Shown here: piece by piece, positions 7,799 to 64,000 of the stretch
Position numbering within the stretch: the stretch's first letter is position 1
How the letters are laid out: each line of letters opens with the position of its first letter
Assembly (NCBI GenBank): GCA_949130485.1
Contig: OX422196.1
Span: forward strand, 2,710,889 to 2,774,888
Direction: 5' to 3'
Source: Agelas oroides
Lineage: Eukaryota; Porifera; Demospongiae; Agelasida; Agelasidae
DNA length: 64,000 nt
The notes under the pieces: generated by a model
The model's input: the letters and a program-made list of their open reading frames with translations, nothing else
Told to the model about the DNA's origin: nothing
Databases searched by the model: none
Made by a program: the position numbers and the translations under genes

Positions 7799-7812
7799 AA
7801 GCTTATCTTCAA

Positions 7813-7930
7813 GGCAGAGCGTGGTAGAGCGAGGTAGAGTCGGGTCGAGCCAGGGAGAGTGTGGTAGAGTGAGGTAGAGTGGGTGTAGAGTGGGGTAGAG
7901 TGAGGTAGAGTCGGATCGAGAGAGGGTAGA
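7813..7930 (+). repeat. Short TAGAG decamer array, relative of the big satellite
   Basis: About twelve 10-bp words (one of 11) are visible, for example GGTAGAGCGA, GGTAGAGTCG, GGTCGAGCCA, GGTAGAGTGA, GGTAGAGTGG. The spacing and core (GGTAGAGNNN) are the same as the modules of the satellite that starts at 11485. The minus-strand translation (for example STSLYHTLPGSTRLYL) is close to peptides read from the satellite. It is more GC-rich and lacks the CCATGG word, so it is a divergent or ancestral form rather than a displaced piece. Confidence 0.8.
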
Positions 7931-11099: not shown

Positions 11100-11113
11100 T
11101 TCAACTTGTAATT

Positions 11114-11138
11114 TACTCACGTGATAACATCACGTGCA
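11114..11138. promoter_or_regulatory. Two CACGTG E-boxes upstream of the 11148 start
   Basis: CTCACGTGATAACATCACGTG places two CACGTG palindromes about 10-35 bp before the ATG at 11148. Paired E-boxes of this type are bound by bHLH-zip factors in animals. Function here is inferred only. TCACGTG also recurs within the satellite (TCACGTGGA). Confidence 0.4.
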
Positions 11139-11147
11139 CAATTGAAG

Positions 11148-11492
11148 ATGGCGAACAGAAAGTCTCGTCCTGTATCTCTCTCGCAACCATCACCGAGAAG
11201 TCTACCGGGCTCTCCTGTCCGAATTCTAACCATTAGCTGCTCCCAGAACAACTCACACGCTGCACCACCCCTTGAGGTCGAGCCCCTACCCGCCTCCTCA
11301 CTCCCCACAGCAGTCCAGCCCCTCCCTACACCGCTACACCCGCCTGCACCCTTGCAAGCCACAGCTCCCCTCGTCGCGAATAATGCTTTCGAAGAACACC
11401 CTACTATTGCTAACAATGAGTTGCCAAACACTCGCAAGACGAAGATTGTACCTCTGGTGACTACAGCTTTAATAATTCAAATGTTCAAGTAG
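11148..11492 (+). CDS. Putative first coding exon, unrecognised Pro/Ser-rich protein
   Basis: The ATG at 11148 has a good context (TTGAAGATGGCG, purine at -3 and G at +4) and is followed by 114 sense codons. The N-terminus MANRKSRPVSLSQPSPRSLP is basic and Ser/Pro-rich; a proline-rich middle (LPTPLHPPAPLQATAPL) and a more hydrophobic end (KIVPLVTTALIIQMFK) follow. The TAG stop at 11490-11492 is the first GTAGAG word of the satellite, so the natural C-terminus may be lost. Alternatively the exon ends at a donor such as CTCTG|GTGACT (about 11455-11460) and the satellite occupies the intron. In-frame ATG codons upstream (11121) exist but have poorer context. No family is recognised. A chance open frame cannot be excluded. 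Confidence 0.4.
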   Translation: MANRKSRPVSLSQPSPRSLPGSPVRILTISCSQNNSHAAPPLEVEPLPASSLPTAVQPLPTPLHPPAPLQATAPLVANNAFEEHPTIANNELPNTRKTKIVPLVTTALIIQMFK

Positions 11493-12691
11493 AGCCATGG
11501 TACAATGGAGTAGAGCCATGGTAGAGTGTAGTAGAGTCAAGTAGAGCCACGGTAGCATGTAGTATAGAGTCATGTAGAGCCAAGTAGAGCCATGGTAGAA
11601 TGTAGTAGAGTCTTGTAGAGTCAAGTAGATCCATGGTAGAATGTAGTAGAGTCATCTAGTGTCAAGTAGAGCCATGGTACAATGGAGTAGAGCCATCGTA
11701 GAGTGTAGTAGAGTCAAGTAGAGCCATGGTAGAGTGTAGTAGAGTCAAGTAGAGCCATGGTAGATTGTAGTAGAGTCATGTAGTGTGAAGTAGAGCCATG
11801 ATATACAATGGAGTAGAGCCATGGTAGAGTGTAGTAGAGTCAAGTAGAGCCAAGTAGAGCCTAGTAGAGCCAAGGTAGAGTGTAGTGGACTCAAGTAGAG
11901 CCAAGTAGAGCCATGGTAGAGTGTAGTAGAGTCAAGTAGAGACAAGTAGAGCCATGGTAGGATGTAGTAGAGTCAAGTAGAGCCATGCTAGAATGTAGTA
12001 GAGCAAGGTAGAGCCATGGTAGAGTGTAGGAGAGTCAAGTAGAGTCACGTGGATCCATGGTAGGATGTAGTAGAGCCAGGTCTAGCAATTATATAGTGTA
12101 GTAGAGTCAAGTAGAGACAAGTAGAGCCATCGTAGAGTGTAGTAGAGTCAAGTAGAGCCAAGTAGAGCCACAGTAGAGTGTGGTAGAGTCACGTAGAGCC
12201 AAGTAGAGTCATGGTAGAGTGTAGTAGAGTCAAGTAGAGTCACGTAGAGCCATGGTAGAATGTAGTAGAGTCAAGTAGAATCAAGTAGAGCCATGGTAGA
12301 GTGTAGTAGATTCAAGTAGAGCCAAGTAGAGGCAAGGTAGAGTGTAGAACAGTCAAGTAGAGTCAAGTAGAGCCATGGCTGAATGTAGTAGAGTCAAGTA
12401 GAGTCAAGTAGAGCCATGGTAGAATGTAGTAGAGGCATACAGAGTCAAGTAGAGCTATGGTAGAATGCAGTAGAGTCACGTAGAGTCACATGGAGCCAAG
12501 GTGGAATGTAGTAGAGACATGGTAGAGTGTAGTAGAGTCAAGTAGAGCCAAGTAGAGCCATGGTAGAGTGTAGTAGAGTCACGTAGAACCAAGTAGAGCC
12601 AAGGTAGGGTGTAGTGCACTCAAGTAGAGCCAAGTAGAGCCATGGTAGAGTGTAGTAGAGTCAAGTAGAGTCAAGGTAGAATGTAGTAGAG

Positions 12692-14694
12692 TCATGTAGT
12701 GTGAAGTAGAGCCATGATATACAATGGAGTAGAGCCAAGGTAGAGTGTAGTAGAGTCAAGTAGAGCCAAGGTAGAGTGTAGTGGACTCACGTAAAACCAA
12801 GTACAGCCATGGTAGAGTGTAGTAGAGTCAAGTAGAGTCAAGTAGAGCCATGGTAGAATGTAGTAGAGCAAGGTAGACCCATGGTAGAGTGTAGGAGAGT
12901 CAAGTAGAGTCACGTGGATCCATGGTAGGATGTAGTAGAGCCATAGAAGAGTTTAGTACAGACAAGTAGAGCCAGGTCTAGCAATGATATAGTGTAGTAG
13001 AGTCAAGTAGAGCCAAGTAGAGCCATCGTAGAGTGTAGTAGAGTCAAGTAGAGCCACGGTAGCATGTAGTAGAGTCATGTAGAGCCATGGTAGAGTGTAG
13101 TAGAGTCAAGTAGAGCCACGGTAGCATGTAGTAGAGTCAAGTACAGCCAAGTAGAGCCAAGGTAGAGTGTAGTGCACTCAAGTAGAGCCAAGTACAGCCA
13201 TGGTAGAGTGTAGTAGAGTCAAGTAGAGTCAAGTAGACCCATGGTAGAATGTAGTAGAGTCGTGTAGAGTCAAGTAGAGCCATGGTAGAATGTAGTAGAG
13301 TCATGTAGTGTCAAGTAGAGCCATGATACAATGGAGTAGAGCCATGGTAGAGTGTAGTAGAGTCAAGTAGAGCCACGGTAGCATGTAGTATAGAGTCATG
13401 TAGAGCCAAGTAGAGCCATGGTAGAATGTAGTAGAGTCTTGTAGAGTCAAGTAGATCCATGGTAGAATGTAGTAGAGTCATCTAGTGTCAAGTAGAGCCA
13501 TGGTACAATGGAGTAGAGCCATCGTAGAGTGTAGTAGAGTCAAGTAGAGCCATGGTAGAGTGTAGTAGAGTCAAGTAGAGCCATGGTAGATTGTAGTAGA
13601 GTCATGTAGTGTGAAGTAGAGCCATGATATACAATGGAGTAGAGCCATGGTAGAGTGTAGTAGAGTCAAGTAGAGCCAAGGTAGAGTGTAGTGGACTCAA
13701 GTAGAGCCAAGTAGAGCCATGGTAGAGTGTAGTAGAGTCAAGTAGAGTCAAGTAGAGCCATGGTAGAATGTAGTAGAGCAAGGTAGACCCATGGTAGAGT
13801 GTAGGAGAGTCAAGTAGAGTCACGTGGATCCATGGTAGGATGTAGTAGAGCCATAGAAGAGTTTAGTACAGACAAGTAGAGCCAGGTCTAGCAATGATAT
13901 AGTGTAGTAGAGTCAAGTAGAGCCAAGTAGAGCCATCGTAGAGTGTAGTAGAGTCAAGTAGAGCCACGGTAGCATGTAGTAGAGTCATGTAGAGCCATGG
14001 TAGAGTGTAGTAGAGTCAAGTAGAGCCACGGTAGCATGTAGTAGAGTCAAGTACAGCCAAGTAGAGCCAAGGTAGAGTGTAGTGCACTCAAGTAGAGCCA
14101 AGTACAGCCATGGTAGAGTGTAGTAGAGTCAAGTAGAGTCAAGTAGACCCATGGTAGAATGTAGTAGAGTCGTGTAGAGTCAAGTAGAGCCATGGTAGAA
14201 TGTAGTAGAGTCATGTAGTGTCAAGTAGAGCCATGATACAATGGAGTAGAGCCATGGTAGAGTGTAGTAGAGTCAAGTAGAGCCACGGTAGCATGTAGTA
14301 TAGAGTCATGTAGAGCCAAGTAGAGCCATGGTAGAATGTAGTAGAGTCTTGTAGAGTCAAGTAGATCCATGGTAGAATGTAGTAGAGTCATCTAGTGTCA
14401 AGTAGAGCCATGGTACAATGGAGTAGAGCCATCGTAGAGTGTAGTAGAGTCAAGTAGAGCCATGGTAGAGTGTAGTAGAGTCAAGTAGAGCCATGGTAGA
14501 TTGTAGTAGAGTCATGTAGTGTGAAGTAGAGCCATGATATACAATGGAGTAGAGCCATGGTAGAGTGTAGTAGAGTCAAGTAGAACCAAGGTAGAGTGTA
14601 GTGGACTCAAGTAGAGCCAAGTAGAGCCATGGTAGAGTGTAGTAGAGTCAAGTAGAGACAAGTAGAACCATGGTAGGATGTATAGTAGAGTCAT
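12692..14694 (+). repeat. 910-bp higher-order repeat, tandem copies
   Basis: Matching landmarks recur exactly 910 bp apart: 12692, 13602 and 14512 for the block carrying CATGATATACAATGGAG, and 13021 and 13931 for AGCCATCGTAGAGTGTAG. Two complete copies and the start of a third are visible, with few differences. Outside this stretch the period is lost. Confidence 0.85.
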
Positions 14695-17600
14695 GTAGAG
14701 TCAAGTAGAGCCATGCTAGAATGTAGTAGAGCAAGGTAGAGCCATGGTAGAGTGTAGGAGAGTCAAGTAGAGTCACGTGGATCCATGGTAGGATGTAGTA
14801 GAGCCAAGGTAGAGTGTAGTAGAGACAAGTAGAGCCAGGTCCAGCAATGATATAGTGTAGTAGAGTCAAGTAGAGCAAAGTAGAGCCATCGTAGAGTGTA
14901 GTAGAGTCAAGTAGAGCCAAGTAGAGCCACAGTAGAGTGTGGTAGAGTCACGTAGAGCCAAGTAGAGTCATGGTAGAGTGTAGTAGAGTCAAGTAGAGTC
15001 ACGTAGACCCATGGTAGAATATAGTAGAGTCATGTAGTGTCAAGTAGAGACATGGTACTATAGAGTAGAGTCAGGTAGAGCCACGTAGACCCACGGTAGC
15101 ATGTAGTAGAGTCATGTAGAGCCAGCTAGAGCCATGGTAGAATGTAGTAGAGCCAGGTAGAGCCATGGTAGAATGCAGTAGAGCCAAGTAGAGTCAAGTG
15201 GAGACATGGTAGAATGTAGTAGAGCCAACGTATAGTGTAGTATAGTGAAGTAGAGTCAAGTAGAGCCATGGTAGAATGTAGTAGAGGTATACAGAGTCAA
15301 GTAGAGCTATCATAGAATGTAGTAGAGTGAAGTAGAGTCACGTGGAGCCATGGTAGAATGTAGTAGAGACAGGGTAGAGTGTAGTACAGTTAAGTAGAGA
15401 CAAGTAGAGGCATAGTAGTGTGTAGTAAAGTCAAGTAGAGCCAAGTAGAGCTATGGTAGAGTGTAGTAGAGCCAAGTAGAACAACGGTAGAGTGTAGGAG
15501 AGTGAAGTAGAGTCAAGAAGAGCCATGGTCACATCTAGTAGAATCATGTAGTGTCAAGTAGAGCCATGGTAGAATGTAGTAGAGCAAGGTAGAGCCATGA
15601 TAGTGTGCAGTAGAGTCAAGTAGAGTCACGTGGAGCCACGTTAGAATGTAGTAGAGCCAAGGTAGAGTGTAGTACAGTCAAGTAGAGCCATGGCAGAATG
15701 TAGTAGAGTCAAGTAGAGTCAAGTAGAGCCATGGTAGAATGTAGTAGAGGCATACAGAGTCAAGTAGAGCTATGGTAGAATGCAGTAGAGTCACGTAGAG
15801 TCACATGGAGCCATGGTAGAATGTAGTAGAGTCAAGTAGAGCCAATTTGAGCCATGGTAGAGTGTAGTAGAGTGAAGTAGAGCCATGGTAGAATGTAGTA
15901 TAGTCATATAGTGTGAAGTAGAGCCATGGTAGAGTGTAGTAAAGTGAAGTAGAGCCAAGTAGAGCCAAGGTAGAATGTAGTGGACTCAAGTAGAGCAAGG
16001 GTAGAGTGTAGTAGAGTCAAGTAGAGTCAAGTAGAGCCATGGTAGAATGTAGTAGAGTCATGTAGAGTCAAGTAGAGCCATGGTAGAATGTAGTAGAGCA
16101 AGGTAGAGCCATGGTAGAGTGTAGGAGAGTCAAGTAGAGTTACGTGGATCCATGGTAGGATGGAGTTGAGCAACGGTAGAGTGTAGTAGAGACAAGTAGA
16201 GCCAGGTCTAGCAATGATATAGTGTATAGTAGAGTCAAGTAGAGCCAAGTAGAGCCATCGTAGAGTGTAGTAGAGCAAAGTAGAGCCATGGTAGAATCTA
16301 GTAGAGTCATGTAGGTCAAGTAGAGCCATGGTACAATGGAGTAGAGTCATGGTAGAGTGTAGTAGAGTCAAGTAGAGCCAAGTAGAGCCACGGTAGAGTG
16401 TGGTAGAGACACGTAGAGCCAAGTAGAGTCATGGTAGAGTGTAGTAGAGTCAAGTAGAGCCAAGTATAGAGCCATGGTAGAATGTAGAAGAGTCATGTAG
16501 TGTCAAGTAGAGACATGGTACTATGGAGTAGAGCCATGGTAGAGTGTAGTAGAGTCAGGTAGAGCCATCTAGAGCCACGGGAGTATGTAGTAGAGTCATG
16601 TAGAACGAAGTAGAGCCATGGTAGAATGTAGTAGAGCCAGGTAGAGCCATGGTAGAATGCAGTACAGTCAAGTAGAGTCACGTGGAGTCACGTTAGAATG
16701 TAGTAGAGCCAAGGTAGAGTGTAGTAGACTCAAGTAGAGTCAAGTAGAGCCATGGCAGAATGTAGTAGAGTCAAGTAGAGCCATGGTAGAATGTAGTAGA
16801 GGCATACAGAGTCAAGTAGAGCTATGGTAGAATGCAGTAGAGTCACGTAGAGTCACATGGAGCCATGGTGGAATGTAGTAGAGACATGGTAGAGTGTAGT
16901 AGAGTCAAGTAGAGCCAAGTAGAGCCATGGTAGAGTGTAGTAGAGTCACGTAGAACCAAGTAGAGCCAAGGTAGGGTGTAGTGCACTCAAGTATAGAGTC
17001 AAGTAGAGTCAAGGTAGAATGTAGTAGAGTCATGTAGTGTGAAGTAGAGCCATGATATACAATGGAGTAGAGCCAAGGTAGAGTGTAGTAGAGTCAAGTA
17101 GAGCCAAGTAGAGCCAAGGTAGAGTGTAGTGGACTCACGTAAAACCAAGTAGAGCCATGGTAGAGTGTAGTAGAGTCAAGTAGAGTAAAGTAGAGCCATG
17201 GTAGAATGTAGTAGAGTCTTGTAGAGTCAAGTAGATCCATGGTAGAATGTAGTAGAGTCATCTAGTGTCAAGTAGAGCCATGGTACAATGGAGTAGAGCC
17301 ATCGTAGAGTGTAGTAGAGTCAAGTAGAGCCATGGTAGATTGTAGTAGAGTCATGTAGTGTGAAGTAGAGCCATGATATACAATGGAGTAGAGCCATGGT
17401 AGAGTGTAGTAGAGTTAAGTAGAGCCAAGTAGAGCCAAGGTAGAGTGTAGTGGACTCAAGTAGAGCCAAGTAGAGCCATGGTAGAGTGTAGTAGAGTCAA
17501 GTAGAGACAAGTAGAGCCATGGTAGGATGTATAGTAGAGTCATGTAGAGTCAAGTAGAGCCATGCTAGAATGTAGTAGAGCAAGGTAGAGCCATGGTAGA

Positions 17601-21393: not shown

Positions 21394-21453
21394 TTTTTTG
21401 TTTTCATGTTTTATACTTTTGTTCTTTTCAACCTGAAAAGGTCATTCATTGTG

Positions 21454-21494
<41 letters not shown>
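21394..21494 (+). mobile_element. Poly(A)-ended insertion inside the satellite
   Basis: About 60 bp of non-satellite sequence (starting TTTTTTGTTTTCATG and ending GGTCATTCATTGTG) is followed by 41 consecutive A (21454-21494), after which the satellite resumes at GTAGATCC. Comparison with the parallel copy near 23611-23660 shows that about 20 bp of satellite (AGTAGAGTCTTGTAGAGTCA) is missing at the insertion point, and no target duplication is seen. It looks like the 3' end of a polyadenylated transcript inserted at a break. It is too short to assign to a gene or a retroelement. Confidence 0.8.
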
Positions 21495-21497
<3 letters not shown>

Positions 21498-39500: not shown

Positions 39501-42500
39501 CATGGTAGAATGTAGAAGAGTCATGTAGTGTCAAGTAGAGACATGGTACTATGGAGTAGAGCCATGGTAGAGTGTAGTAGAGTCAGGTAGAGCCATCTAG
39601 AGCCACGGGAGTATGTAGTAGACTCATGTAGAGCGAAGTAGAGCCATGGTAGAATGTAGTAGAGCCAGGTAGAGCCATGGTAGAATGCAGTAGAGTCAAG
39701 TAGAGTCACGTGGAGTCACGTTAGAATGTAGTAGAGCCAAGGTAGAGTGTAGTAGACTCAAGTAGAGCCATGGCAGAATGTAGTAGAGTCAAGTAGAGTC
39801 AAGTAGTGCCATGGTAGAATGTAGTAGAGGCATACAGAGTCAAGTAGAGCTATGGTAGAATGCAGTAGAGTCACGTAGAGTCACATGGAGCCATGGTGGA
39901 ATGTAGTAGAGACATGGTAGAGTGTAGTAGAGTCAAGTAGAGCCAAGTAGAGCCATGGTAGAGTGTAGTAGAGTCACGTAGAACCAAGTAGAGCCAAGGT
40001 AGGGTGTAGTGCACTCAAGTATAGAGTCAAGTAGAGTCAAGGTAGAATGTAGTAGAGTCATGTAGTGTGAAGTAAAGCCATGATATACAATGGAGTAGAG
40101 CCAAGGTAGAGTGTAGTAGAGTCAAGTAGAGCCAAGTAGAGCCGAGGTAGAGTGTAGTGGACTCACGTAAAACCAAGTAGAGCCATGGTAGAGTGTAGTA
40201 GAGTCAAGTAGAGTCAAGTAGAGCCATGGTAGAATGTAGTAGAGCAAGGTAGAGCCATGGTAGAGTGTAGGAGAGTCAAGTAGAGTCACGTGGATCCATG
40301 GTAGGATGTAGTAGAGCCATAGAAGAGTTTAGTACAGACAAGTAGAGCCAGGTCTAGCAATGATATAGTGTAGTAGAGTCAAGTAGAGCCAAGTAGAGCC
40401 ATCGTAGAGTGTAGTAGAGTCAAGTAGAGCCACGGTAGCATGTAGTAGAGTCATGTAGAGCCAAGTAGAGCCACCGTAGAGTGTGGTAGAGTCACGTAGA
40501 GCCAAGTAGAGTCATGGTAGAGTATAGTAGAGTCAAGTAGAGTCACGTAGAGCCATGGTAGAATGTAGTAGAGTCAAGTAGAATCAAGTAGAGCCATGGT
40601 AGAGTGTAGTAGATTCAAGTAGAGCCAAGTAGAGCCAAGGTAGAGTGTAGTACAGTCAAGTAGAGTCAAGTAGAGCCATGGCTGAATGTAGTAGAGTCAA
40701 GTAGAGTCAAGTAGAGCCATGGTAGAATGTAGTAGAGGCATACAGAGTCAAGTAGAGCTATGGTAGAATGCAGTAGAGTCACGTAGAGTCACATGGAGCC
40801 ATGGTAGGATGTAGTAGAGCCATAGAAGAGTTTAGTACAGACAAGTAGAGCCAGGTCTAGCAATGATATAGTGTAGTAGAGTCAAGTAGAACCATCGTAG
40901 AGTGTAGTAGAGTCAAGTAGAGCCACGGTAGCATGTAGTAGAGTCATGTAGAGCCAAGTAGAGCCACAGTAGAGTGTGGTAGAGTCACGTAGAGCCAAGT
41001 AGAGTCATGGTAGAGTATAGTAGAGTCAAGTAGAGTCACGTAGAGCCATGGTAGAATGTAGTAGAGTCAAGTAGAATCAAGTAGAGCCAAGTAGAGCCAT
41101 GGTAGAATGTAGTAGAGTCTTGTAGAGTCAAGTAGATCCATGGTAGAATGTAGTAGAGTCATCTAGTGTCAAGTAGAGCCATGGTACAATGGAGTAGAGC
41201 CATCGTAGAGTGTAGTAGAGTCAAGTAGAGCCATGGTAGAGTGTAGTAGAGTCAAGTAGTGCCATGGTAGATTGTAGTAGAGTCATGTAGTGTGAAGTAG
41301 AGCCATGATATACAATGGAGTAGAGCCATGGTAGAGTCTAGTAGAGTCAAGTAGAGCCAAGTAGAGCCAAGGTAGAGTGTAGTGGACTCAAGTAGAGCCA
41401 AGTAGAGCCATGGTAGAGTGTAGTAGAGTCAGGTAGAGACAAGTAGAGCCATGGTAGGATGTAGTAGAGTCAGGTAGAGCCACGTAGACCCACGGTAGCA
41501 TGTAGTAGAGTCATGTAGAGCCAAGTAGAGCCATGGTAGAATGTAGTAGAGCCAGGTAGAGCCATGGTAGAATGGAGTAGAGTCAAGTAGAGTCAAGTGG
41601 AGACATGGTAGAATGTAGTAGAGCCAACGTAGAGTGTAGTATAGTGAAGTAGAGTCAAGTAGAGCCATGGTAGAATGTAGTAGAGGTATACAGAGTCAAG
41701 TAGAGCTATCGTAGAATGTAGTAGAGTGAAGTAGAGTCACGTGGAGCCATGGTAGAATGTAGTAGAGACAGGGTAGAGTATAGTACAGTCAAGTAGAGAC
41801 AAGTAGAGCCATGGTAGTGTGTAGGAGAGTCAAGTAGAGTCACGTGGATCCATGGTAGGATGTAGTAGAGCCATGGTAGAGTGTAGTAGAGACAAGTAGA
41901 GCCAGGTCCAGCAATGATATAGTGTAGTAGAGTCAAGTAGAGCAAAGTAGAGCCATCGTAGAGTGTAGTAGAGTCAAGTAGAGCCAAGTAGAGCCACAGT
42001 AGAGTGTGGTAGAGTCACGTAGAGCCAGGTAGAGTCATGGTAGAGTGTAGTAGAGTCAAGTAGAGTCACGTAGAGCCATGGTAGAATGTAGTAGAGTCAT
42101 GTAGTGTCAAGTAGAGACATGGTACTATAGAGTAGAGCCATGGTAGAGTGTAGTAGAGTCAGGTATAGCCACGTAGACCCACGGTAGCATGTAGTAGAGT
42201 CATGTAGAGCCAAGTAGAGCCATGGTAGAATGTAGTAGAGCCAGGTAGGGCCATGGTAGAATGCAGTAGAGTCAAGTAGAGTCAAGTGGAGACATGGTAG
42301 AATGTAGTAGAGCCAACGTAGAGTGTAGTATAGTGAAGTAGAGTCAAGTAGAGCCATGGTAGAATGTAGTAGAGGTATACAGAGTCAAGTAGAGCTATCG
42401 TAGAATGTAGTAGAGTGAAGTAGAGTCACGTGGAGCCATGGTAGAATGTAGTAGAGACAGGGTAGAGTGTAGTACAGTCAAGTAGAGACAAATAGAGCCA

Positions 42501-43560
42501 TGGTAGTGTGTAGTAAAGTCAAGTAGAGCAAAGTAGAGCTATGGTAGAGTGTAGTAGAGCCAAGTAGAGCAACGGTAGAGTGTAGGAGAGTGAAGTAGAG
42601 TCAAGAAGAGCCATGGTAGCATCTAGTAGAATCATGTAGTGTCAAGTAGAGCCATGGTAGAATGTAGTAGAGCAAGGTAGAGCCATGGTAGTGTGTAGTA
42701 GAGTCAAGTAGAGTCACGTGGAGCCACGTTAGAATGTAGTAGAGCCAAGGTAGAGTGTAGTACAGTCAAGTAGAGTCAAGTAGAGCCATGGCAGAATGTA
42801 GTAGAGTCAAGTAGAGTCAAGTAGAGCCATGGTAGAATGTAGTAGAGGCATACAGAGTCAAGTAGAGCTATGGTAGAATGCAGTAGAGTCACGTGGAGCC
42901 ATGGTAGAATGTAGTAGAGCCATGGTAGAGTGTAGTAGAGTCAAGTAGAGCCAATTTGAGCCATGGTAGAGTGTAGTAGAGTGAAGTAGAGCCATGGTAG
43001 AATGTAGTATAGTCATATAGTGTGAAGTAGAGCCATGGTAGAGTGTAGTAAAGTGAAGTAGAGCCAAGTAGAGCCAAGGTAGAATGTAGTGGACTCAAGT
43101 AGAGCAAGGGTAGAGTGTAGTAGAGTCAAGTAGAGTCAAGTAGAGCCATGGTAGAATGTAGTAGAGTCATGTAGAGTCAAGTAGAGCCATGGTAGAATGT
43201 AGTAGAGCAAGGTAGAGCCATGGTAGAGTGTAGGAGAGTCAAGTAGAGTTACGTGGATCCATGGTAGGATGGAGTTGAGCAACGGTAGAGTGTAGTAGAG
43301 ACAAGTAGAGCCAGGTCTAGCAATGATATAGTGTATAGTAGAGTCAAGTAGAGCCAAGTAGAGCCATCGTAGAGTGTAGTAGAGCAAAGTAGAGCCATGG
43401 TAGAATCTAGTAGAGTCATGTAGTGTCAAGTAGAGCCATGGTACAATTGAGTAGAGTCATGGTAGAGTGTAGTAGAGTCAAGTAGAGCCACGGTAGAGTG
43501 TGGTAGAGACACGTAGAGCCAAGTAGAGTCATGGTAGAGTGTAGTAGAGTCAAGTAGAGC
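27590..43560 (+). repeat. About 11.2-kb super-repeat
   Basis: Blocks at 27888, 28353 and 29581 recur at 39056, 39521 and 40749 with a constant offset of 11,168 bp. Further right the offset becomes 10,754 bp (31343 and 42097; 32135 and 42889) because of internal gains and losses. Thus about 27.6-33 kb is copied at about 38.7-43.6 kb. Confidence 0.75.
30268..31603 (+). repeat. 689-bp tandem duplication within the satellite
   Basis: The block with GTGTCAAGTAGAGACATGG at 30661 recurs at 31350 (offset 689), and the frames 30654-30914 and 31343-31603 translate almost identically. The same doublet appears about 10.8 kb further right near 41.4-42.4 kb (offset 668). Confidence 0.7.
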
Positions 43561-45780
43561 CAAGTATAGAGCCATGGTAGAATGTAGTAGAGTCAAGTAG
43601 AGCCAAGTAGAGCCATCATAGAGTCAAGTAGAGCCAAGTAGAGCCATGGTAGAATCTAGTAGAGTCATGTAGTGTCAAGTAGAGCCATGGTACAATGGAG
43701 TAGAGTCATGGTAGAGTGTAGTAGAGTCAAGTAGAGCCAAGTAGAGCCACGGTAGAGTGTGGTAGAGACACGTAGAGCCAAGTAGAGTCATGGTAGAGTG
43801 TAGTAGAGTCAAGTTGAGCCAAGTATAGAGCCATGGTAGAATGTAGTAGAGTCATGTAGTGTCAAGTAGAGACATGGTACTATGGTGTAGAGCCATGGTA
43901 GAGTGTAGTAGAGTCAAGTAGAGCCACGGTAGTATGTAGTAGAGTCATGTAGAGCCAAGTAGAGCCATTGTAGAATGTAGTAGAGCCAGGTAGAGCCATG
44001 GTAGAATGAACTAGAGTCAAGTAGAGTCACGTGGAGCCATGACAGAATGTAGTAGAGTGAAGTAGAGTCAAGTAGAGCCATGGTAGAATGTAGTAGAGGT
44101 ATACAGAGTCAAGTAGAGCTATCGTAGAATGTAGTAGAGTGAAGTAGAGTCACGTGGAGCCATGGTAGAATGTAGTAGAGACAGGGTAGAGTGTAGTACA
44201 GTCAAGTAGAGACAAGTAGAGCCATGGTAGTGTGTAGTAAAGTCAAGTAGAGCAAAGTAGAGCTATGGTAGAGTGTAGTAGAGCCAAGTAGAGCAACGGT
44301 AGAGTGTAGGAGAGTGAAGTAGAGTCAAGAAGAGCCATGGTAGCATCTAGTAGAATCATGTAGTGTCAAGTAGAGCCATGGTAGAATGTAGTAGAGCAAG
44401 GTAGAGCCATGGTAGTGTGTAGTAGAGTCAAGTAGAGTCACGTGGAGCCACGTTAGAATGTAGTAGAGCCAAGGTAGAGTGTAGTACAGTCAAGTAGAGT
44501 CAAGTAGAGCCATGGCAGAATGTAGTAGAGTCAAGTAGAGTCAAGTAGAGCCATGGTAGAATGTAGTAGAGGCATACAGAGTCAAGTAGAGCTATGGTAG
44601 AATGCAGTAGAGTCACGTGGAGCCATGGTAGAATGTAGTAGAGCCATGGTAGAGTGTAGTAGAGTCAAGTAGAGCCAATTTGAGCCATGGTAGAGTGTAG
44701 TAGAGTGAAGTAGAGCCATGGTAGAATGTAGTATAGTCATATAGTGTGAAGTAGAGCCATGGTAGAGTGTAGTAAAGTGAAGTAGAGCCAAGTAGAGCCA
44801 AGGTAGAATGTAGTGGACTCAAGTAGAGCAAGGGTAGAGTGTAGTAGAGTCAAGTAGAGTCAAGTAGAGCCATGGTAGAATGTAGTAGAGTCATGTAGAG
44901 TCAAGTAGAGCCATGGTAGAATGTAGTAGAGCAAGGTAGAGCCATGGTAGAGTGTAGGAGAGTCAAGTAGAGTTACGTGGATCCATGGTAGGATGGAGTT
45001 GAGCAACGGTAGAGTGTAGTAGAGACAAGTAGAGCCAGGTCTAGCAATGATATAGTGTATAGTAGAGTCAAGTAGAGCCAAGTAGAGCCATCGTAGAGTG
45101 TAGTAGAGCAAAGTAGAGCCATGGTAGAATCTAGTAGAGTCATGTAGTGTCAAGTAGAGCCATGGTACAATTGAGTAGAGTCATGGTAGAGTGTAGTAGA
45201 GTCAAGTAGAGCCACGGTAGAGTGTGGTAGAGACACGTAGAGCCAAGTAGAGTCATGGTAGAGTGTAGTAGAGTCAAGTAGAGCCAAGTATAGAGCCATG
45301 GTAGAATGTAGTAGAGTCAAGTAGAGCCAAGTAGAGCCATCATAGAGTCAAGTAGAGCCAAGTAGAGCCATGGTAGAATCTAGTAGAGTCATGTAGTGTC
45401 AAGTAGAGCCATGGTACAATGGAGTAGAGTCATGGTAGAGTGTAGTAGAGTCAAGTAGAGCCAAGTAGAGCCACGGTAGAGTGTGGTAGAGACACGTAGA
45501 GCCAAGTAGAGTCATGGTAGAGTGTAGTAGAGTCAAGTTGAGCCAAGTATAGAGCCATGGTAGAATGTAGTAGAGTCATGTAGTGTCAAGTAGAGACATG
45601 GTACTATGGTGTAGAGCCATGGTAGAGTGTAGTAGAGTCAAGTAGAGCCACGGTAGTATGTAGTAGAGTCATGTAGAGCCAAGTAGAGCCATTGTAGAAT
45701 GTAGTAGAGCCAGGTAGAGCCATGGTAGAATGAACTAGAGTCAAGTAGAGTCACGTGGAGCCATGTTAGAATGTAGTAGA
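42333..45780 (+). repeat. 1724-bp near-identical tandem duplication
   Basis: 42858, 42889 and 43136 correspond to 44582, 44613 and 44860, each offset 1724 bp, and the encoded shadow peptides are identical. Rare variants such as GTACAATTGAG (43441 and 45165) and CATCATAGAGTCAAG (about 43615 and 45339) are shared. Only an occasional difference was seen (AAATAGAG at 42489 against AAGTAGAG in the second copy). This is the youngest duplication in the window. Boundaries are approximate. Confidence 0.85.
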
Positions 45781-55200: not shown

Positions 55201-58200
55201 GAGTGTGGTAGAGTCACGTAGAGCCAAGTAGAGTCATGGTAGAGTATAGTAGAGTCAAGTAGAGTAACGTAGAGCCATGGTAGAATGTAGTAGAGTCAAG
55301 TAGAATCAAGTAGAGCCATGGTAGAGTGTAGTAGATTCAAGTAGAGCCAAGTAGAGCCAAGGTAGAGTGTAGTACAGTCAAGTAGAGTCAAGTAGAGCCA
55401 TGGCTGAATGTAGTAGAGTCAAGTAGAGTCAAGTAGAGCCATGGTGGAATGTAGTAGAGGCATACAGAGTCAAGTAGAGCTATGGTAGAATGCAGTAGAG
55501 TCACGTAGAGTCACATGGAGCCATAGTGGAATGTTGTAGAGACATGGTAGAGTGTAGTAGAGTCAAGTAGAGCCAAGTAGAGCCATGGTAGAGTGTAGTA
55601 GAGTCACGTAGAACCAAGTAGAGCCAAGGTAGGGTGTAGTGCACTCAAGTAGAGCCAAGTAGAGCCATGGTAGAGTGTAGTCGAGTCAAGTAGAGTCAAG
55701 GTAGAATGTAGTAGAGTCATGTAGTGTGAAGTAGAGCCATGATATACAATGGAGTAGAGCCAAGGTAGAGTGTAGTAGAGTCAAGTAGAGCCAAGTAGAG
55801 CCAAGGTAGAGTGTAGTGGACTCACGTAAAACCAAGTAGAGCCATGGTAGAGTGTAGTAGAGTCAAGTAGAGTCAAGTAGAGCCATGGTAGAATGTAGTA
55901 GAGCAAGGTAGAGCCATGGTAGAGTGTAGGAGAGTCAAGTAGAGTCATGTGGATCCATGGTAGGATGTAGTAGAGCCATAGAAGAGTTTAGTACAGACAA
56001 GTAGAGCCAGGTCTAACAATGATATAGTGTAGTAGAGTCAAGTAGAGCCAAGTAGAGCCATCGTAGACTGTAGTAGAGTCAAGTAGTGCCACGGTAGCAT
56101 GTAGTAGAGTCATGTAGAGCCAAGTAGAGCCACAGTAGAGTGTGGTAGAGTCACGTAGAGCCAAGTAGAGTCATGGTAGAGTATAGTAGAGTCAAGTAGA
56201 GTCACGTAGAGCCATGGTAGAATGTAGTAGAGTCAAGTAGAATCAAGTAGAGCCAAGTAGAGCCATGGTAGAATGTAGTAGAGTCTTGTAGAGTCAAGTA
56301 GATCCATGGTAGAATGTAGTAGAGTCATCTAGTGTCAAGTAGAGCCATGGTACAATGGAGTAGAGCCATCGTAGAGTGTAGTAGAGTCAAGTAGAGCCAT
56401 GGTAGAGCGTAGTAGAGTCAAGTAGAGCCATGGTAGATTGTAGTAGAGTCATGTAGTGTGAAGTAGACCCATGATATATAATGGAGTAGAGCCATGGTTG
56501 AGTGTAGTAGAGTCAAGTAGAGCCAAGTAGAGCCAAGGTAGAGTGTAGTGGACTCAAGTAGAGCCAAGTAGAGCCATGGTAGAGTGTAGTAGAGTCAAGT
56601 AGAGACAAGTAGAGCCATGGTAGGATGTATAGTAGAGTCATGTAGAGTCAAGTAGAGCCATGCTAGAATGAAGTAGAGCAAGGTAGAGCCATGGTAGAGT
56701 GTAGGAGAGTCAAGTAGAGTCACGTGAATCCATGGTAGGATCTGTAGTAGAGCCAAGGTAGAGTGTAGTAGAGACAAGTAGAGCCAGGTCCAGCAATGAT
56801 ATAGTGTAGTAGAGTCAAGTAGAGCAAAGTAGAGCCATCGTAGAGTGTAGTAGAGTCAAGTAGAACCATGGTAGAATGTAGTAGAGTCATGTAGTGTCAA
56901 GTAGACCCATGGTACAATGGAGTAGAGCCAAGGTAGAGTGCAGTACAGTCAAGTAGAGTCAAGTAGAGCCATGACAGAATGTAGTAGAGTCAAGTAGAAT
57001 CAAGTAGAGCCATGGTAGAGTGTAGTAGATTCAAGTAGAGCCAAGTATTGCTAAGGTAGAGTGTAGTACAGTCAAGTAGAGTCAAGTAGAGCCATGGCTG
57101 AATGTAGTACAGTCAAGTAGAGTCAAGTAGAGCGATGGTAGAATGTAGTAGAGGCATACAGAGTAAAGTAGAGCTATGGTAGAATGCAGTAGAGTCACGT
57201 AGAGTCACATGGAGCCATGGTAGAATGTAGTAGAGACATGGTAGAGTGTAGTAGAGTCAACTACAGCCAAGTAGAGCCATGGTAGAGTGTAGTAGAGTCA
57301 CGTATAACCATGTAGAGCCAAGGTAGGGTGTAGTGGACTCAAGTAGAGCCAAGTAGAGCCATGGTAGAGTATAGTAGAGTCAAGTAGAGTCAAGGTAGAA
57401 TGTAGTAGAGTCATGTAGTGTGAAGTAGAGCCATGATATACAATGGAGTAGAGCCAAGGTAGAGTGTAGTAGAGTCAAGTAGTGCCAAGTAGAGCCAAGG
57501 TAGAGTGTAGTGGGCTCACGTAAAACCAAGTAGAGCCAAGGTAGGGTGTAGTGGACTCAAGTAGAGTCAAGTAGAGCCATGGTAGAATGTAGTAGAGCAA
57601 GGTAGAGCCATGGTAGAGTGTAGGAGAGTCAAGTAGAGTCACGTGGATCCATGGTAGGATGTAGTAGAGCCAAGGAAGAGTGTAGTACCGACAAGTAGAG
57701 CCAGGTCTAACAATGATATAGTGTAGTAGAGTCAAGTAGAGCCAAGTAGAGCCATCGTAGAGTGTAGTAGAGTCAAGTAGAGCCATGGTAGAATGTAGTA
57801 GAGTCATGTAGTGTCAAGTAGGACCTTGGTACAATGGAGTAGAGCCATGGTAGAGTGTAGTAGAGTCAAGTGGAGCCACGGTAGCATGTAGTAGAGTCAT
57901 GTAGAGCCAAGTAGAGCCATGGTAGAGTGTAGTAGAGTCAAGTAGAGCCACGGTAGCATGTAGTAGAGTCATGTAGAGCCAAGTAGAGCCATGGTAGAGA
58001 GTAGCAGAATCAAGTACAGCCAAGTAGAGCCAAGGTAGAGTGTAGTGAACTCAAGTAGAGCCAAGTACAACCATGGTAGAGTGTAGTAGAGTCAAGTAGA
58101 GTCAAGTAGAGCCATGGTAGAATGTAGTAGAGTCGTGTAGAGTCAAGTAGAGCCATGGTAGAATGTAGTAGAGTCATGTAGTGTCAAGTAGAGCCATGGT

Positions 58201-61200
58201 ACAATGGAGTAGAGCCATGGTAGAGTGTAGTAGAGTCAAGTAGAGCCACGGTAGCATGTAGTATAGAATCATGTAGAGCCAAGTAGAGCCATGTTAGAAT
58301 GTAGTAGAGTCTTGTAGAGTCAAGTAGATCCATGGTGGAATGTAGTAGAGTCATCTAGTGTCAAGTAGAGCCATGGTACAATGGAGTAGAGCCATCGTAG
58401 AGTGTAGTAGAGTCAAGTAGAGCCAAGTAGAGCCAAGGTAGAGTGTAGTGGACTCAACTAGAGCCAAGTAGAGCCATGGTAGAGTGTAATAGAGTCAAGT
58501 AGAGACAAGTAGAGCCATGGTAGGATGTAGTAGAGTCATGTAGAGTCAAGTAGAGCCATGCTAGAATGTAGTAGAGCAAGGTAGAGCCATGGTAGAGTGT
58601 AGGAGAGTCAAGTAGAGTCACATGGATCCATGGTAGGATGTAGTAGAGCCAAGGTAGAGTGTAGTAGAGACAAGTAGAGCCAGGTCTAGCAATGATATAG
58701 TGTAGTAGAGTCAAGTAAAGCCAAGTAGAGTCATCGTAGAGTGTAGTAGAGTCAAGTAGAGCCAAGTAGAGCCACAGTAGAGTGTGGTAGAGTCACGTAG
58801 AGCCAAGTAGAGTCATGGTAGAGTGTAGTAGAGTCAAGTAGAGTCACGTAGAGCCATGGTAGAATGTAGTAGAGTCATGTAGTGTGAAGTAGAGCCATGA
58901 TATACAATGGAGTAGAGCCATGGTAGAGTGTAGTAGAGTCAGGTAGAGCCACGTAGACCCACGGTAGCATGTAGTAGAGTCATGTAGAGCCAAGTAGAGC
59001 CATGGTAGAATGTAGTAGAGCCAGGTAGAGCCATGGTAGAATGCAGTAGAGTCACGTGGAGACATGGTAGAATCTAGTAGAGCCAACGTAGAGTGTAGTA
59101 TAGTGAAGTAGAGTCAAGTAGAGCCATGGTAGAATGTAGTAGAGGTATACAGAGTCAAGTAGAGCTATCGTAGAATGTAGTAGAGTGAAGTTGAGTCACG
59201 TGGAGCCATGGTAGAATGTAGTAGAGACAGGGTAGAGTGTAGTACAGTCAAGTAGAGACAAGTAGAGCCATGGTAGTGTGTAGTAAAGTCAAGTAGAGCC
59301 AAGTAGAGCTATGGTAGAGTGTAGTAGAGCCAAGTAGAGCAACGGTAGAGTGTAGGAGAGTGAAGTAGAGTCAAGAAGAGCCACGGTAGCATCTAGTAGA
59401 ATCATGTAGAGTCATGTAGAGCCATGGCAGAATGTTGTAGAGTCAAGTAGAGTCAAGTAGTGCCATGGTAGAATGTAGTAGAGGCATACAGAGTCACGTA
59501 CAGCTATGGTAGAATGCAGTAGAGTCACGTAGAGTCACGTGGAGCCAAGGTAGAATGTAGAAGAGCCATGGTAGAGTGTAGTAGAGTCAAGTAGAGCCAA
59601 TTTGAGTCATGGTAGAGTGTAGTAGAGTGAAGTAGAGCCATGGTAGAATGTAGTATAGTCATATAGTGTGAAGTAGAGCCATGATATGCAATGGAGTAGA
59701 GCCATGGTAGAGTGTAGTAAAGTGAAGTAGAGCCAAGTAGAGCCAAGGTAGAATGTAGTGGACTCAAGTAGAGCCAAGAAGAGCCAGGGTAGAGTGTATT
59801 AGAGTCAAGTAGAGTCAAGTAGAGCCATGGTAGAATGTAGTAGAGTCACGTAGAGTCAAGTAGAGCCATGGTAGAGTGTAGTAGAGCCACGTAGAACCAA
59901 GTAGAGCCAAGGTAGGGTGTAGTGCACTCAAGTAGAGCCAAGTAGAGCCATGGTAGAGTGTAGTAGAGTCAAGTAGAGTCAAGGTAGAGTGTAGTAGAGT
60001 CATGTAGTGTGAAGTAGATCCATGATGTACAATGGAGTAGAGCCAAGGTAGAGTGTAGTAGAGTCAAGTAGAGCCAAGTAGAGCCAAGGTAGAGTGTAGT
60101 AGACTCACGTAAAACCAAGTAGAGCCATGGTAGAGTGTAGTAGAGTCAAGTAGAGTCAAGTAGAGCCATGGTAGAATGTAGTAGAGCAAGGTAAAGCCAT
60201 GGTAGAGTATAGGAGAGTCAAGTAGAGTCACGTGGATCCATGGTAGGATGTAGTAAAGCCATAGAAGAGTTTAGTACAGACAAGTAGAGCCAGGTCTAGC
60301 AATGATATAGTGTAGTAGAGTCAAGTAGAGCCAAGTAGAGCCATCGTCGAGAGTAGTAGAGTCAAGTAGAGCCACGGTAGCATGTAGTAGAGTCATGTAG
60401 AGCCAAGTAGAGCCACAGTAGAGTGTGGTAGAGTCACGTAGAGCCAAGTAGAGTCATGGTAGAGTATAGTAGAGTCAAGTAGAGTCACGTAGAGCCATGG
60501 AAGAATGTAGTAGAGTCAAGTGGAATCAAGTAGAGCCATGGTAGAGTGTAGTAGATTCAAGTAGAGCCAAGTAGAGCCAAGGTAGAGTGTAGTACAGTCA
60601 AGTAGAGTCAAGTAGAGCCATGGCAGAATGTAGTAGAGTCAAGCAGAGTCAAGTAGAGCCATGGTAGAATGTAGTAGAGGCATACAGAGTCAAGTAGAGC
60701 TATGGTAGAATGCAGTAGAGTCACGTAGAGTCACATGGAGCCATGGTGGAATGTAGTAGAGACATGGTAGAGTGTAGTAGAGTCAAGTAGAGCCAAGTAG
60801 AGCCATGGTAGAGTGTAGTAGAGTCACGTAGAACCAAGTAGAGCCAAGGTAGGGTGTAGTGCACTCAAGTAGAGCCAAGTAGAGCCATGGTAGAGTGTAG
60901 TAGAGTCAAGTAGAGTCAAGGTAGAATGTAGTAGAGTCATGTAGTGTGAAGTAGAGCCATGATATACAATGGAGTAGAGCCAAGGTAGAGTGTAGTAGAG
61001 TCAAGTAGAGCCAAGTAGAGCAAAGGTAGAGTGTAGTGGACTCACGTAAAACCAAGTAGAGCCATGGTAGAGTGTACTAGAGTCAAGTAGAGTCAAGTAG
61101 AGCCATGGTAGAATGTAGTAGAGCAAGGTAGAGCCATGGTAGAGTGTAGGAGAGTCAAGTAGAGTCACGTGGATCCATGGTAGGATGTAGTAGAGCCATA

Positions 61201-62600
61201 GAAGAGTTTAGTACAGACAAGTAGAGCCAGGTCTAGCAATGATATAGTGTAGTAGAGTCAAGTAGAGCCAAGTAGAGCCATCGTAGACTGTAGTAGAGTC
61301 AAGTAGAACCACGGTAGCATGTAGTAGAGTCATGTAGAGCCAAGTAGAGCCACAGTAGAGTGTGGTAGAGTGACGTAGAGCCAAGTAGAGTCATGGTAGA
61401 GTATAGTAGACTCAAGTAGAGTCACGTAGAGCCATGGTAGAATGTAGTAGAGTCAAGTAGAATCAAGTAGAGCCAACTAGAGCCATGGTAGAATGTAGTA
61501 GAGTCTTGTAGAGTCAAGTAGATCCATGGTAGAATGTAGTAGAGTCATCTAGTGTCAAGTAGAGCCATGGTACAATGGAGTAGAGCCATCGTAGAGTGTA
61601 GTAGAGTCAATTAGAGCAATGGTAGAGTGTAGTAGAGTCAAGTAGAGCCATGGTAGATTGTAGTAGAGTCATGTAGTGTGAAGTAGAGCCATGATATACA
61701 ATGGAGTAGAGCCATGGTAGAGTGTAGTAGACTCAAGTAGAGCCAAGTAGAGCCAAGGTAGAGTGTAGTGGACTCAAGTAGAGCCAAGTAGAGCCATGGT
61801 AGAGTGTAGTAGAGTCAAGTAGAGAGAAGTAGAGCCATGGTAGGATGTATAGTAGAGTCATGTAGAGTCAAGTAGAGCCATGCTAGAATGAAGTAGAGCA
61901 AAGTAGAGCCATGGTAGAGTGTAGGAGAGTCAAGTAGAGTCACGTGGATCCATGGTAGGATCTGTAGTAGAGCCAAGGTAGAGTGTACTAGAGACAAGTA
62001 GACCCAGGTCCAGCAATGATATAGTGTAGTAGAGTCAAGTAGAGCAAAGTAGAGCCATTGTAGAGTGTAGTAGAGTCAAGTAGAGCCAAGTAGAGCCACA
62101 GTAGAGCGTGGTAGAGTCACGTAGAGCCAAGTAGAGTCATGGTAGAGTGTAGTAGAGTCAAGTAGAGTCACGTAGAGCCATGGTAGAATGTAGTAGAGTC
62201 ATGTAGTGTCAAGTAGAGACATGGTACTATAGAGTAGAGCCAAGATAGAGTGTAGTAGAGTGAGGTAGAGCCACGTAGACCCACGGTAGCATGTAGTAGA
62301 GTCATGTAGAACCAAGTAGAGCCATGGTAGAATGTAGTAGAGCCGGGTAGAGCCATGGTAGAATGCAGTAGAGTCAAGTAGAGTCAAGTGGAGACATGGT
62401 AGAATGTAGTAGAGCCAACGTAGAGTGTAGTATAGTGAAGTAGAGTCAAGTAGAGCCATGGTAGAATGTAGTAGAGGTATACAGAGTCAAGTAGAGCTAT
62501 CGTAGAATGTAGTAGAGTGAAGTAGAGTCACGTGGAGCATTGGTAGAATGTAGTAGAGACAGGGTAGAGTGTAGTACAGTCAAGTAGAGGCAAGTAGAGC
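52200..62600 (+). repeat. About 5.2-kb tandem duplication within the satellite
   Basis: The rare variant GTGTAGTACCGACAAG occurs near 52530 and 57680. The points 52503 and 57651 are offset 5148 bp, and 53183 and 58454 are offset 5271 bp, as are 53573 and 58844. 56595 and 61815 are offset 5220 bp. The two copies cover about 52.2-57.4 kb and 57.4-62.6 kb and differ by unit-sized indels. Confidence 0.75.
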
Positions 62601-64000
62601 CATGGTAGTGTGTAGTAAAGTCAAGTAGAGCCAAGTAGAGCTATTGTAGAGTGTAGTAGAGCCAAGTAGTGCAACAGTAGAGTGTAGGAGAGTGAAGTAG
62701 AGTCAAGAAGAGCCATGGTAGCATCTAGTAGAATCATGTAGTGTCAAGTAGAGCCATGGTAGAATGTAGTAGAGCAAGGTAGAGCCATGGTAGTGTGTAG
62801 TAGAGTTAAGTAGAGTCACATGGAGCCACGTTAGAATGTAGTAGAGCCAAGGTAGAGTGTAGTACAGTCAAGTAGAGTCAAGTAGAGCCATGGCAGAATG
62901 TAGTCGAGTCAAGTAGAGCCATGGTAAAATGTAGTAGAGGCATACAGAGTCAAGTAGAGCTATGGTAGAATGCAGTAGAGTCACGTAGAGTCACGTGGAG
63001 CCATGGTAGAATGTAGTAGAGCCATGGTAGAGTGTAGTAGAGTCAAGTAGAGCCAATTTGAGCCATGGTAGAGTGTAGTAGAGTGAAGTAGAGCCATGGT
63101 AGAATGTAGTATAGTCATATAGTGTGAAGTAGAGCCATGGTAGAGTGTAGTAAAGTGAAGTAGAGCCAAGTAGAGCCAAGGTAGAATGTAGTGGACTCAC
63201 GTAGAGCAAGGGTAGAGTGTAGTAGAGTCAAGTAGAGTCCAGTAGAGCCATGGTAGAATGTAGTAGAATCATGTAGAGTCAAGTAGAGCCATGGTAGAAT
63301 GTAGTAGAGCAAGGTAGAGCCATGGTAGAGTGTAGGAGAGTCAAGTAGAGTCACGTGGATCCATGGTAGGATGGAGTTGAGCAAAGGTAGAGTGTAGTAG
63401 AGACAAGTAGAGTCAGGTCTAGCAATGATATAGTGTAGTAGAGTCAAGTAGAGCCAAGTAGAGCCATCGTAGAGTGTAGTAGAGCAAAGTAGAGCCATGG
63501 TAGAATCTAGTAGAGTCATGTAGTGTCAAGTAGAGCCATGGTACAATGGAGTAGAGTCATGGTAGAGTGTAGTAGAGTCAAGTAGAGCCAAGTAGAGCCA
63601 CGGTAGAGTGTGGTAGAGACACGTAGAGCCAAGTAGAGTCATGGTAGAGTGTAGTAGAGTCAAGTAGAGCCAAGTATAGAGCCATGGTAGAATGTAGTAG
63701 AGTCATGTAGTGTCAAGTAGAGACATGGTACTATGGTGTAGAGCCATGGTAGAGTGTAGTAGAGTCAAGTAGAGCCACGGTAGTATGTAGTAGAGTCATG
63801 TAGAGCCAAGTAGAGCCATTGTAGAATGTAGTAGAGCCAGGTAGAGCCATGGTAGAATGAACTAGAGTCAAGTAGAGTCACGTGGAGCCACGTTAGAATG
63901 TAGTAGAGCCAAGGTAGAGTGTAGTACAGTCAAGTATAGAGTCAAGTAGAGCCATGGCAGAATGTAGTAGAGTCAAGTAGAGTCAAGTAGAGCCATGGTA

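What the first reader, a model, noticed from the sequence alone, without database searches (positions are those of the whole stretch)
11485..64000. A 52-kb satellite whose modules keep near-perfect DNA helical phase
The sequence shows TA steps in GTAGAG spaced 11, 10, 10 bp in the 31-bp unit (mean 10.33) and 11, 10, 10, 10 in the 41-bp unit (mean 10.25). This stays close to the helical repeat over tens of kilobases. Flexible TA steps at about 10-bp spacing are known to favour wrapping on nucleosomes, so the array could be an exceptionally strong nucleosome-positioning or curved-DNA domain, perhaps a centromeric or heterochromatic platform. The 11-mer that appears once per unit looks like a phase correction. 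The functional part is inference.
Basis: partly seen in the sequence, partly recalled or inferred. Interest (0 to 1): 0.8.

Follow-up and report, generated by a model that had tools for sequence, protein, structure and literature searches.

The report
Satellite DNA with helix-length modules
A half-megabase block of satellite DNA is built from 10- and 11-base modules, so it repeats in step with the turn of the double helix; this looks like a by-product of how the array grows rather than a specially tuned chromosome platform.

Summary
TA steps repeat every 10.30 bp. Phase holds within a nucleosome (TA resultant 0.68 at 147 bp) but fades to 0.41 at 2.4 kb and 0.02 over 52.5 kb. The window holds the start of a ~499-kb array. 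Clusters of the family lie on at least ten of 23 chromosomes, three to five of these with two clusters. In the eight arrays sampled outside C1, 10- and 11-mers average 10.27-10.30 bp. The even 11-mers reflect the unit: one 11-mer plus one to three 10-mers. Shuffling whole units leaves phase coherence nearly unchanged. Large length changes between recent duplicates are mostly whole modules, TA is at most weakly protected, A-tracts are scarce. Most likely the helical step follows from amplification in a ten-base register. Nucleosome-scale rotational phasing is plausible but untested; a one-per-chromosome centromere is disfavoured. Short satellites with ~10-bp periodicity, such as Drosophila Prodsat, are in print. 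A new satellite of a known kind, perhaps from a freshwater sponge (inference).

The parts
11485..64000 (+). First 52.5 kb of a ~499-kb satellite array; head to tail on one strand; units of 41, 31 and 21 bp, each one 11-mer plus 1-3 10-mers with core GTAGAG
   Evidence: (no reverse-complement 16-mer)
21394..21494 (+). Insert of about 100 bp ending in a run of 41 A (retroposon-like, inference) inside the array
42493..45765 (+). Recent duplication inside the array: 1549-bp exact repeat, copies beginning at 42493 and 44217 (distance 1724 bp)
12805..14584 (+). Recent duplication: 870-bp exact repeat, copies beginning at 12805 and 13715 (distance 910 bp)
11090..11484 (+). Left junction: fragment of a dispersed element with 7 further matches in the genome, one of them only 34 bp. 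Of 5 copies read, 4 continue past the junction point with one shared sequence instead of the array, the fifth breaks off into other DNA; none of the five 500-bp stretches has GTAGAG
7812..7930 (+). Short degenerate GTAGAG decamer array outside the main array

Best explanation
It is a non-coding satellite family made of 10-bp modules (GTAGAG plus a 4-base tail) and, once per unit, an 11-bp module (GTAGAG plus 5 bases). Shown: an array of about half a megabase and sister arrays at many sites with differing module orders; unit lengths of 10n+1; length differences of 10 bp or more between recent duplicates that are mostly whole modules. Inferred: unequal exchange and replication slippage in a ten-base register spread and re-shuffle the modules, so the roughly 10.3-bp step is kept without selection for DNA phase. 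Inferred: the DNA is packed as heterochromatin in which nucleosomes may share a rotational setting locally, while no long-range phase is encoded.
For: Module lengths: in the window 70.4% 10, 27.6% 11, 2.0% other of 5084; in ten sample sets from eight arrays outside C1 (C14 first, C2, C3 two, C9, C12, C14 second, C15) the mean of 10- and 11-mers is 10.27-10.30, and 10.26-10.39 with all modules. Even spacing of 11-mers beats random module order (variance of 14-module length 0.29 against 2.83), but shuffling whole units gives nearly the same 60-module coherence: window 0.924 against 0.915; observed higher in 4 of 9 sets, lower in 5. Of 54 gaps of 10 bp or more between recent duplicates in the window, 44 are 10, 11, 20, 21, 31 or 41 bp. 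Phase fades over 2-5 kb. In 377 blocks from 14 samples TA positions are not uniquely protected: mismatch at consensus bases 0.8-1.2% at T1 and A2, 0.4-1.1% at A4, 0.7-1.2% at A8. Longest stop-free runs 46 codons (+) and 136 (-).
Against: Small gaps (1-9 bp) per mismatch between recent duplicates are low: 0.013-0.092 in 14 array samples (11 of 14 within 0.02-0.05), against 0.06, 0.13 and 0.47 in three other satellites of the genome and 0.29 and 0.06 in two C1 arrays of the family; two further controls, 0.03 and 1.88, rest on 750 and 192 aligned bases. That could mean mild constraint on spacing, though the controls are few and differ in sequence. In 3 of 9 sets (window, further C14 samples, one C3 array) observed coherence exceeds the unit shuffle by more than two standard deviations. 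In 10-mers A2 and T1 are the two least mismatched positions, and T1 (1.1%) is lower than the other consensus T positions (1.7 and 2.2%). Three other satellites of the genome also use 10-bp steps, which a pure by-product reading does not predict.
Confidence: 0.72

Rival explanations
1. Selected nucleosome-phasing satellite: module length and the 11-mer are kept by selection because rotationally phased DNA makes stable nucleosomes or heterochromatin.
For: TA period 10.30 bp with SS and GC about half a turn away; the same mean step in arrays on C2, C3, C9, C12, C14 and C15 although the C14 and C2 samples share no 65-mer; 0.7-3.3% phase-breaking modules beside 9-11% core mismatches in the ten sets outside C1; low small-gap rate in most samples.
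Against: Unit order carries little or no phase information; phase fades in 2-5 kb; TA at most weakly conserved over other positions; AA/TT out of phase with TA.
Confidence: 0.15
2. Centromeric satellite: the arrays are the sites of CENP-A chromatin.
For: Hundreds of kilobases, chromosome-internal, array-specific variants; clusters on at least ten chromosomes.
Against: Two multi-hit clusters megabases apart on C3, C12 and C14; only 10 exact hits of the 31-mer on C1; no listed hit on C4-C7, C11, C17, C18 or C20, though three of the six lists were cut at 100 rows; a CHAT-domain reading frame lies about 2 kb from the last module of the C14 array.
Confidence: 0.1
3. Intrinsically curved DNA domain.
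For: Helically phased steps.
Against: Runs of 4 or more A or T: 16+7 in 52.5 kb against 75+67 in the 11.5-kb flank; AA/TT is rare and only weakly periodic (power 2.4).
Confidence: 0.03

Closest known systems
Drosophila Prodsat (AATAACATAG, 10-mer) and dodecasatellite (11/12-mer)
   Same: Satellites of 10-12-bp modules; a 10-bp periodicity is proposed to favour nucleosome wrapping (PMC5844345, passages seen).
   Different: Different sequence; that paper stresses AA/WW periodicity and finds pure five-copy Prodsat runs in 68 of 86 reference sequences, here TA periodicity in heterogeneous units of 21/31/41 bp; no CENP-A or Prod-like binding data here.
Maize CentC and rice CentO
   Same: Satellites with ~10-bp dinucleotide periodicity that sets nucleosome position or rotation (maize: PMC3053214, passages seen; rice: cited in PMC8997354, passages seen).
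   Different: CentC has a ~156-bp monomer and AA/TT periodicity; here the unit is 21-41 bp and the periodic step is TA.
Human alpha satellite with higher-order repeats (recalled, from no call)
   Same: Array-specific variants and recent local duplications.
   Different: No single higher-order period here: next-copy distances vary (1724, 910, 2132, 11168 bp and others).

Membership tests
Satellite DNA | Long head-to-tail tandem array | tested here: met
Satellite DNA | Same family at many genomic sites | tested here: met
Satellite DNA | Non-coding | tested here: met
   stop-free runs at most 46 (+) and 136 (-) codons in 52.5 kb
Satellite DNA | Heterochromatic packing | not testable with these tools
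   no chromatin data
Centromeric satellite | One main array on every chromosome | tested here: not met
   two multi-hit clusters on C3, C12 and C14; C1 only 10 exact 31-mer hits; (lists cut at 100 rows, so absence on other chromosomes is not shown)
Centromeric satellite | CENP-A occupancy | not testable with these tools
   25 histone-family matches in the genome; CENP-A not singled out
Rotational nucleosome-phasing satellite | Strong ~10.2-10.4-bp periodicity of flexible steps over nucleosome length | tested here: met
   TA power 9.1 at 10.3 bp in 147-bp blocks (flank 0.96), resultant 0.68 at 147 bp
Rotational nucleosome-phasing satellite | AA/TT in phase with TA, GC/SS half a turn away | tested here: inconclusive
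   SS 5.4 and GC 4.2 bp from TA (fits); AA/TT 6.8 bp from TA (does not fit)
Rotational nucleosome-phasing satellite | Nucleosomes mapped in rotational register | not testable with these tools
   no MNase data
A-tract curved DNA | A-tracts phased with the helix | tested here: not met
   23 runs of 4 or more A or T in 52.5 kb, against 142 in the 11.5-kb flank

The most novel reading that the evidence does not exclude
This genome favours satellites whose module is one helical turn: the GTAGAG family (10.3 bp), the GTAGAGTATG decamer near the start of C2, and the GAGAC and GGGAAT families (10-bp steps mixed with others). Selection at the level of nucleosome wrapping chooses which minisatellites may grow into chromosome-scale heterochromatin, and the 11-mer tunes a 10.0-bp repeat to the 10.2-10.3 bp of nucleosomal DNA.
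Probability: 0.12. Interest if true: 0.65.

Novelty: new member of a known kind. Interest (0 to 1): 0.33.

Why it matters
It offers a well-resolved, chromosome-scale natural test of an idea already in print, that satellites with helix-length periodicity are favoured because they wrap nucleosomes well. Many arrays share a 10.3-bp step but differ in module order, and another decamer satellite of the same genome (L027) has only 4% 11-mers, so two causes, selection on wrapping or growth in a ten-base register, can be separated by nucleosome mapping and indel spectra. My searches of the held papers listed no description of this family: GTAGAG with 'satellite DNA' (20 of 118 papers listed), sponge with centromere (0 papers), satellite DNA in sponges (10 of 62 listed). 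That is the reach of those searches, not proof.

Tried and rejected
Coding minisatellite: rejected, no stop-free run above 136 codons. RNA family: cmscan of the whole window at gathering thresholds, 0 matches. Array as part of the mobile element at its left edge: 5 copies of that element were read past the junction point and none carries GTAGAG. Higher-order repeat of one fixed length: not seen, duplication distances vary. Active phase correction by unit order: not supported by unit shuffling. Self-BLAST for the indel spectrum timed out with no output and was replaced by block alignment. My nine hand-built consensus strings of 62-82 bases matched nothing in the window. The sponge reading rests on 23 chromosome-sized contigs of which the first is the largest (contig lengths), TTAGGG ends on C2 and C14 and flank GC of 36-47%, compared with passages of PMC7385117; inference only. 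Family searches failed as busy eight times: PF00115 (not asked again), PF00125, answered.

Limits: the hit lists show 100 of 5360, 139 and 147 places in contig order, so the later contigs are less surveyed; searches list all of 24, 94 and 10. Extents of arrays other than the first on C14 are spans of hits, with sparse or no reading between them; the second clusters on C15 and C19 rest on few hits. In one search modules of other lengths stay in, which raises the variances there. In one search blocks without a partner, with under 80% aligned or outside 82-99.5% identity were dropped (window: 101 of 131 kept); the band was 90-99.5%. The phase figures use a fixed clock and include the insert at 21394-21494. 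The output was cut in the middle by the tool and the missing part was not read. Structures, solved-structure searches and prokaryote, phage and plasmid collections were not used.

Papers: PMC8997354, PMC8122249, PMC5844345, PMC3053214, PMC12141999, PMC12616128 and PMC7385117 were seen as passages; all others only as search listings with the starts of abstracts.

Full report
What was checked. The window is C14:2,710,889-2,774,888 of a 259.3-Mb assembly with 141 contigs. The array begins at window 11485 and runs to the window's end on one strand (no reverse-complement 16-mer). GTAGAG intervals are overwhelmingly 10, 11 and sums of them. The TA spectrum peaks at 10.30 bp at every block size from 147 to 10,000 bp; in 1000-bp blocks the best power is 43.3 in the array and 1.8 in the 11.5-kb flank.

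How far the phase reaches. With TA positions and a fixed 10.3-bp clock, the resultant is 0.71 at 50 bp, 0.68 at 147 bp, 0.60 at 600 bp, 0.41 at 2.4 kb, 0.25 at 5 kb, 0.18 at 10 kb and 0.02 over the whole stretch. So the helical period holds locally everywhere, but phase is not carried over tens of kilobases.

Anatomy. A dynamic-programming parse gives 5084 modules in the window: 70.4% of 10 bp, 27.6% of 11 bp, 2.0% other; mean 10.28 for 10- and 11-mers, 10.33 for all. Among 1956 modules with exact cores on both sides the commonest tails are TCAA, TGTA and CCAA (10-mers) and CCATG and CCAAG (11-mers). Counting a unit from one 11-mer to the next, 61% of 1404 units are 41 bp, 18% are 31 bp and 14% are 21 bp.

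Why the 11-mers are so even. Against random module order the arrangement is strikingly even: the variance of the length of 14 modules, counting 10- and 11-mers only, is 0.29 against 2.83 in the window, and 0.19-0.61 against 2.73-2.98 in the other ten sets. Yet even random order keeps most of the phase over 14 modules (coherence 0.946 against 0.967 in the window). If whole units are shuffled, 60-module coherence is 0.915 against 0.924 in the window; over nine sets the observed value is higher in four and lower in five. In the window, in the further C14 samples (0.942 against 0.933) and in one C3 array (0.883 against 0.826) it exceeds the shuffle by more than two standard deviations, a small effect that recent local duplication could explain (inference). 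The order of units therefore holds little or no extra phase information; one 11-mer per unit of 10n+1 is enough.

Growth and mutation. The array is full of recent duplications: 38% of 150-mers recur, and the longest exact pair is 1549 bp at a distance of 1724 bp. Aligning 400-bp blocks with their nearest relatives (window: 101 of 131 blocks kept, mean identity 0.977) gives 922 mismatches, 41 gaps of 1-9 bp and 54 gaps of 10 bp or more, 44 of these being 10, 11, 20, 21, 31 or 41 bp. So the larger length changes are mostly whole modules. Small gaps per mismatch are 0.013-0.092 over 14 array samples, against 0.06 (GGGAAT satellite), 0.13 (GAGAC satellite), 0.47 (GTAGAGTATG decamer), 0.29 and 0.06 (two C1 arrays of the family), 0.03 (181-bp repeat, 750 bases only) and 1.88 (54-bp repeat, 192 bases only). 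This may hint at weak constraint, but the controls are few. Over 377 blocks from 14 samples, mismatch at consensus bases is 0.8-1.2% at T1 and A2, 0.4-1.1% at A4, 0.7-1.2% at A8, 2.0% at A9, 1.7 and 2.2% at the other T positions and 1.3-2.5% at G and C positions. In 10-mers A2 and T1 are the least mismatched positions, in 11-mers A4 and A8 are. So TA is at most weakly protected.

Nucleosome and curvature features. At 10.3 bp in 147-bp blocks, power is 9.1 for TA, 10.6 for CA/TG, 4.2 for GC, 2.0 for SS and 2.4 for AA/TT (1 = random; flank TA 0.96). GC and SS lie 4.2 and 5.4 bp from TA, the half-turn rule; AA/TT lies 6.8 bp and CA/TG 6.4 bp away, which does not fit the rule. Runs of 4 or more A or T are 23 in 52.5 kb against 142 in the 11.5-kb flank. 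Hence local rotational preference is plausible, A-tract curvature is not.

Genome context. The C14 array runs from 2,722,373 to about 3,221,620 (last dense core); all 15 loci sampled wholly between (L009-L017, L029-L034) are array, one of them with a ~3-kb interruption. Hit clusters of the family lie on C1 (26.35-26.37 Mb), C2 (6.33-6.57), C3 (8.36-8.81 and 11.63-12.32), C8 (7.49-7.58), C9 (7.02-7.13), C12 (2.00-2.03 and 4.45-4.47), C14 (2.72-3.22 and 5.82-6.04), C15 (2.26-2.42, and four hits near 4.99), C19 (4.53-4.82, and hits at 1.65 and 1.68) and C21 (5.34-5.41). Isolated hits are listed on C10, C13, C16, C22 and C23. The exact 31-mer occurs 5360 times in the genome, 89 of them in the window, which by simple scaling suggests about 3 Mb of satellite (inference). 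Samples from C2, C3 (two), C9, C12, C14 (both arrays) and C15 have the same mix, 26-29% 11-mers and 0.7-3.3% other lengths. Variants are array-specific: the C14 and C2 samples share 9 different 60-mers and no 65-mer. Small dispersed arrays also occur, some with more phase-breaking modules (15% in L001 on C1).

Edges. On the left the array abuts a fragment of a dispersed element. Of five copies read, four continue past this point with one shared sequence and the fifth breaks off into other DNA; none has GTAGAG in the stretch read. On the right, a reading frame with a CHAT domain lies about 2 kb from the last module, followed by a frame with AIG1 and TPR domains. Upstream (L019) lies a reverse-transcriptase frame.

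Organism. C1-C23 are 6.8-32.7 Mb and C24 is 89 kb; C2 and C14 end in TTAGGG repeats. The number 23 with a much larger first chromosome resembles the freshwater sponge karyotype described in PMC7385117 (passages), although here C2 (26.2 Mb) and C3 (19.4 Mb) are large too. This is inference; the Spongilla lacustris (248.7 Mb) and Eunapius fragilis (218.9 Mb) assemblies in print differ in span.

Comparison with what is known. The idea that ~10-bp periodicity in satellites favours nucleosome wrapping is in print (PMC8997354, PMC5844345, PMC3053214; passages), and 10-mer and 11/12-mer satellites are known in Drosophila. The present family works, at most, like those; membership in 'centromeric satellite' fails on distribution as far as surveyed, and membership in 'rotational phasing satellite' is open for lack of chromatin data.

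Verdict. A real and well-formed satellite, not found described in the searches made, but a new member of a known kind. The helical phase is most simply a by-product of a unit with one 11-mer and a ten-base register of growth.

Noticed in passing
window 10328-11090: Foldback or MITE-like element: 83-bp arms, 100% complementary, 597 bp apart; the arms are made of 12-bp sub-repeats.
   Followed up: partly
window 21394-21494: Insert ending in 41 A inside the satellite, retroposon-like.
   Followed up: no
L027 4955-7205 (near the start of C2): A different decamer array, GTAGAGTATG, with the same GTAGAG core but 89% 10-bp and 4% 11-bp modules, about 225 copies.
   Followed up: partly
L021 3400-10000 and L035 1-690 (C2 6.328-6.346 Mb): Satellite AGACACCATG with 10-bp steps mixed with steps such as 17, 23, 33 and 37 bp, directly beside the left end of the C2 GTAGAG array.
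   Followed up: partly
L020 (C14 1-10000): GGGAAT satellite with 10-bp steps inside longer spacings of 43, 53 and 63 bp.
   Followed up: no
L055 5696-6889 and L018 1-5859: CHAT-domain frame and an adjoining 1953-codon frame with AIG1 GTPase and TPR domains beside the right edge of the array.
   Followed up: partly
window 5857-6765 (-): 302-codon frame with weak kinase-like matches (Kdo kinase E 2e-4, Pkinase E 5e-4).
   Followed up: partly
L003 600-1800 (C1 25.26 Mb): Small GTAGAG array in both orientations back to back.
   Followed up: no
L044, L045 (ends of C14 and C2): 54/55-bp subtelomeric repeat directly before TTAGGG telomere repeats.
   Followed up: no
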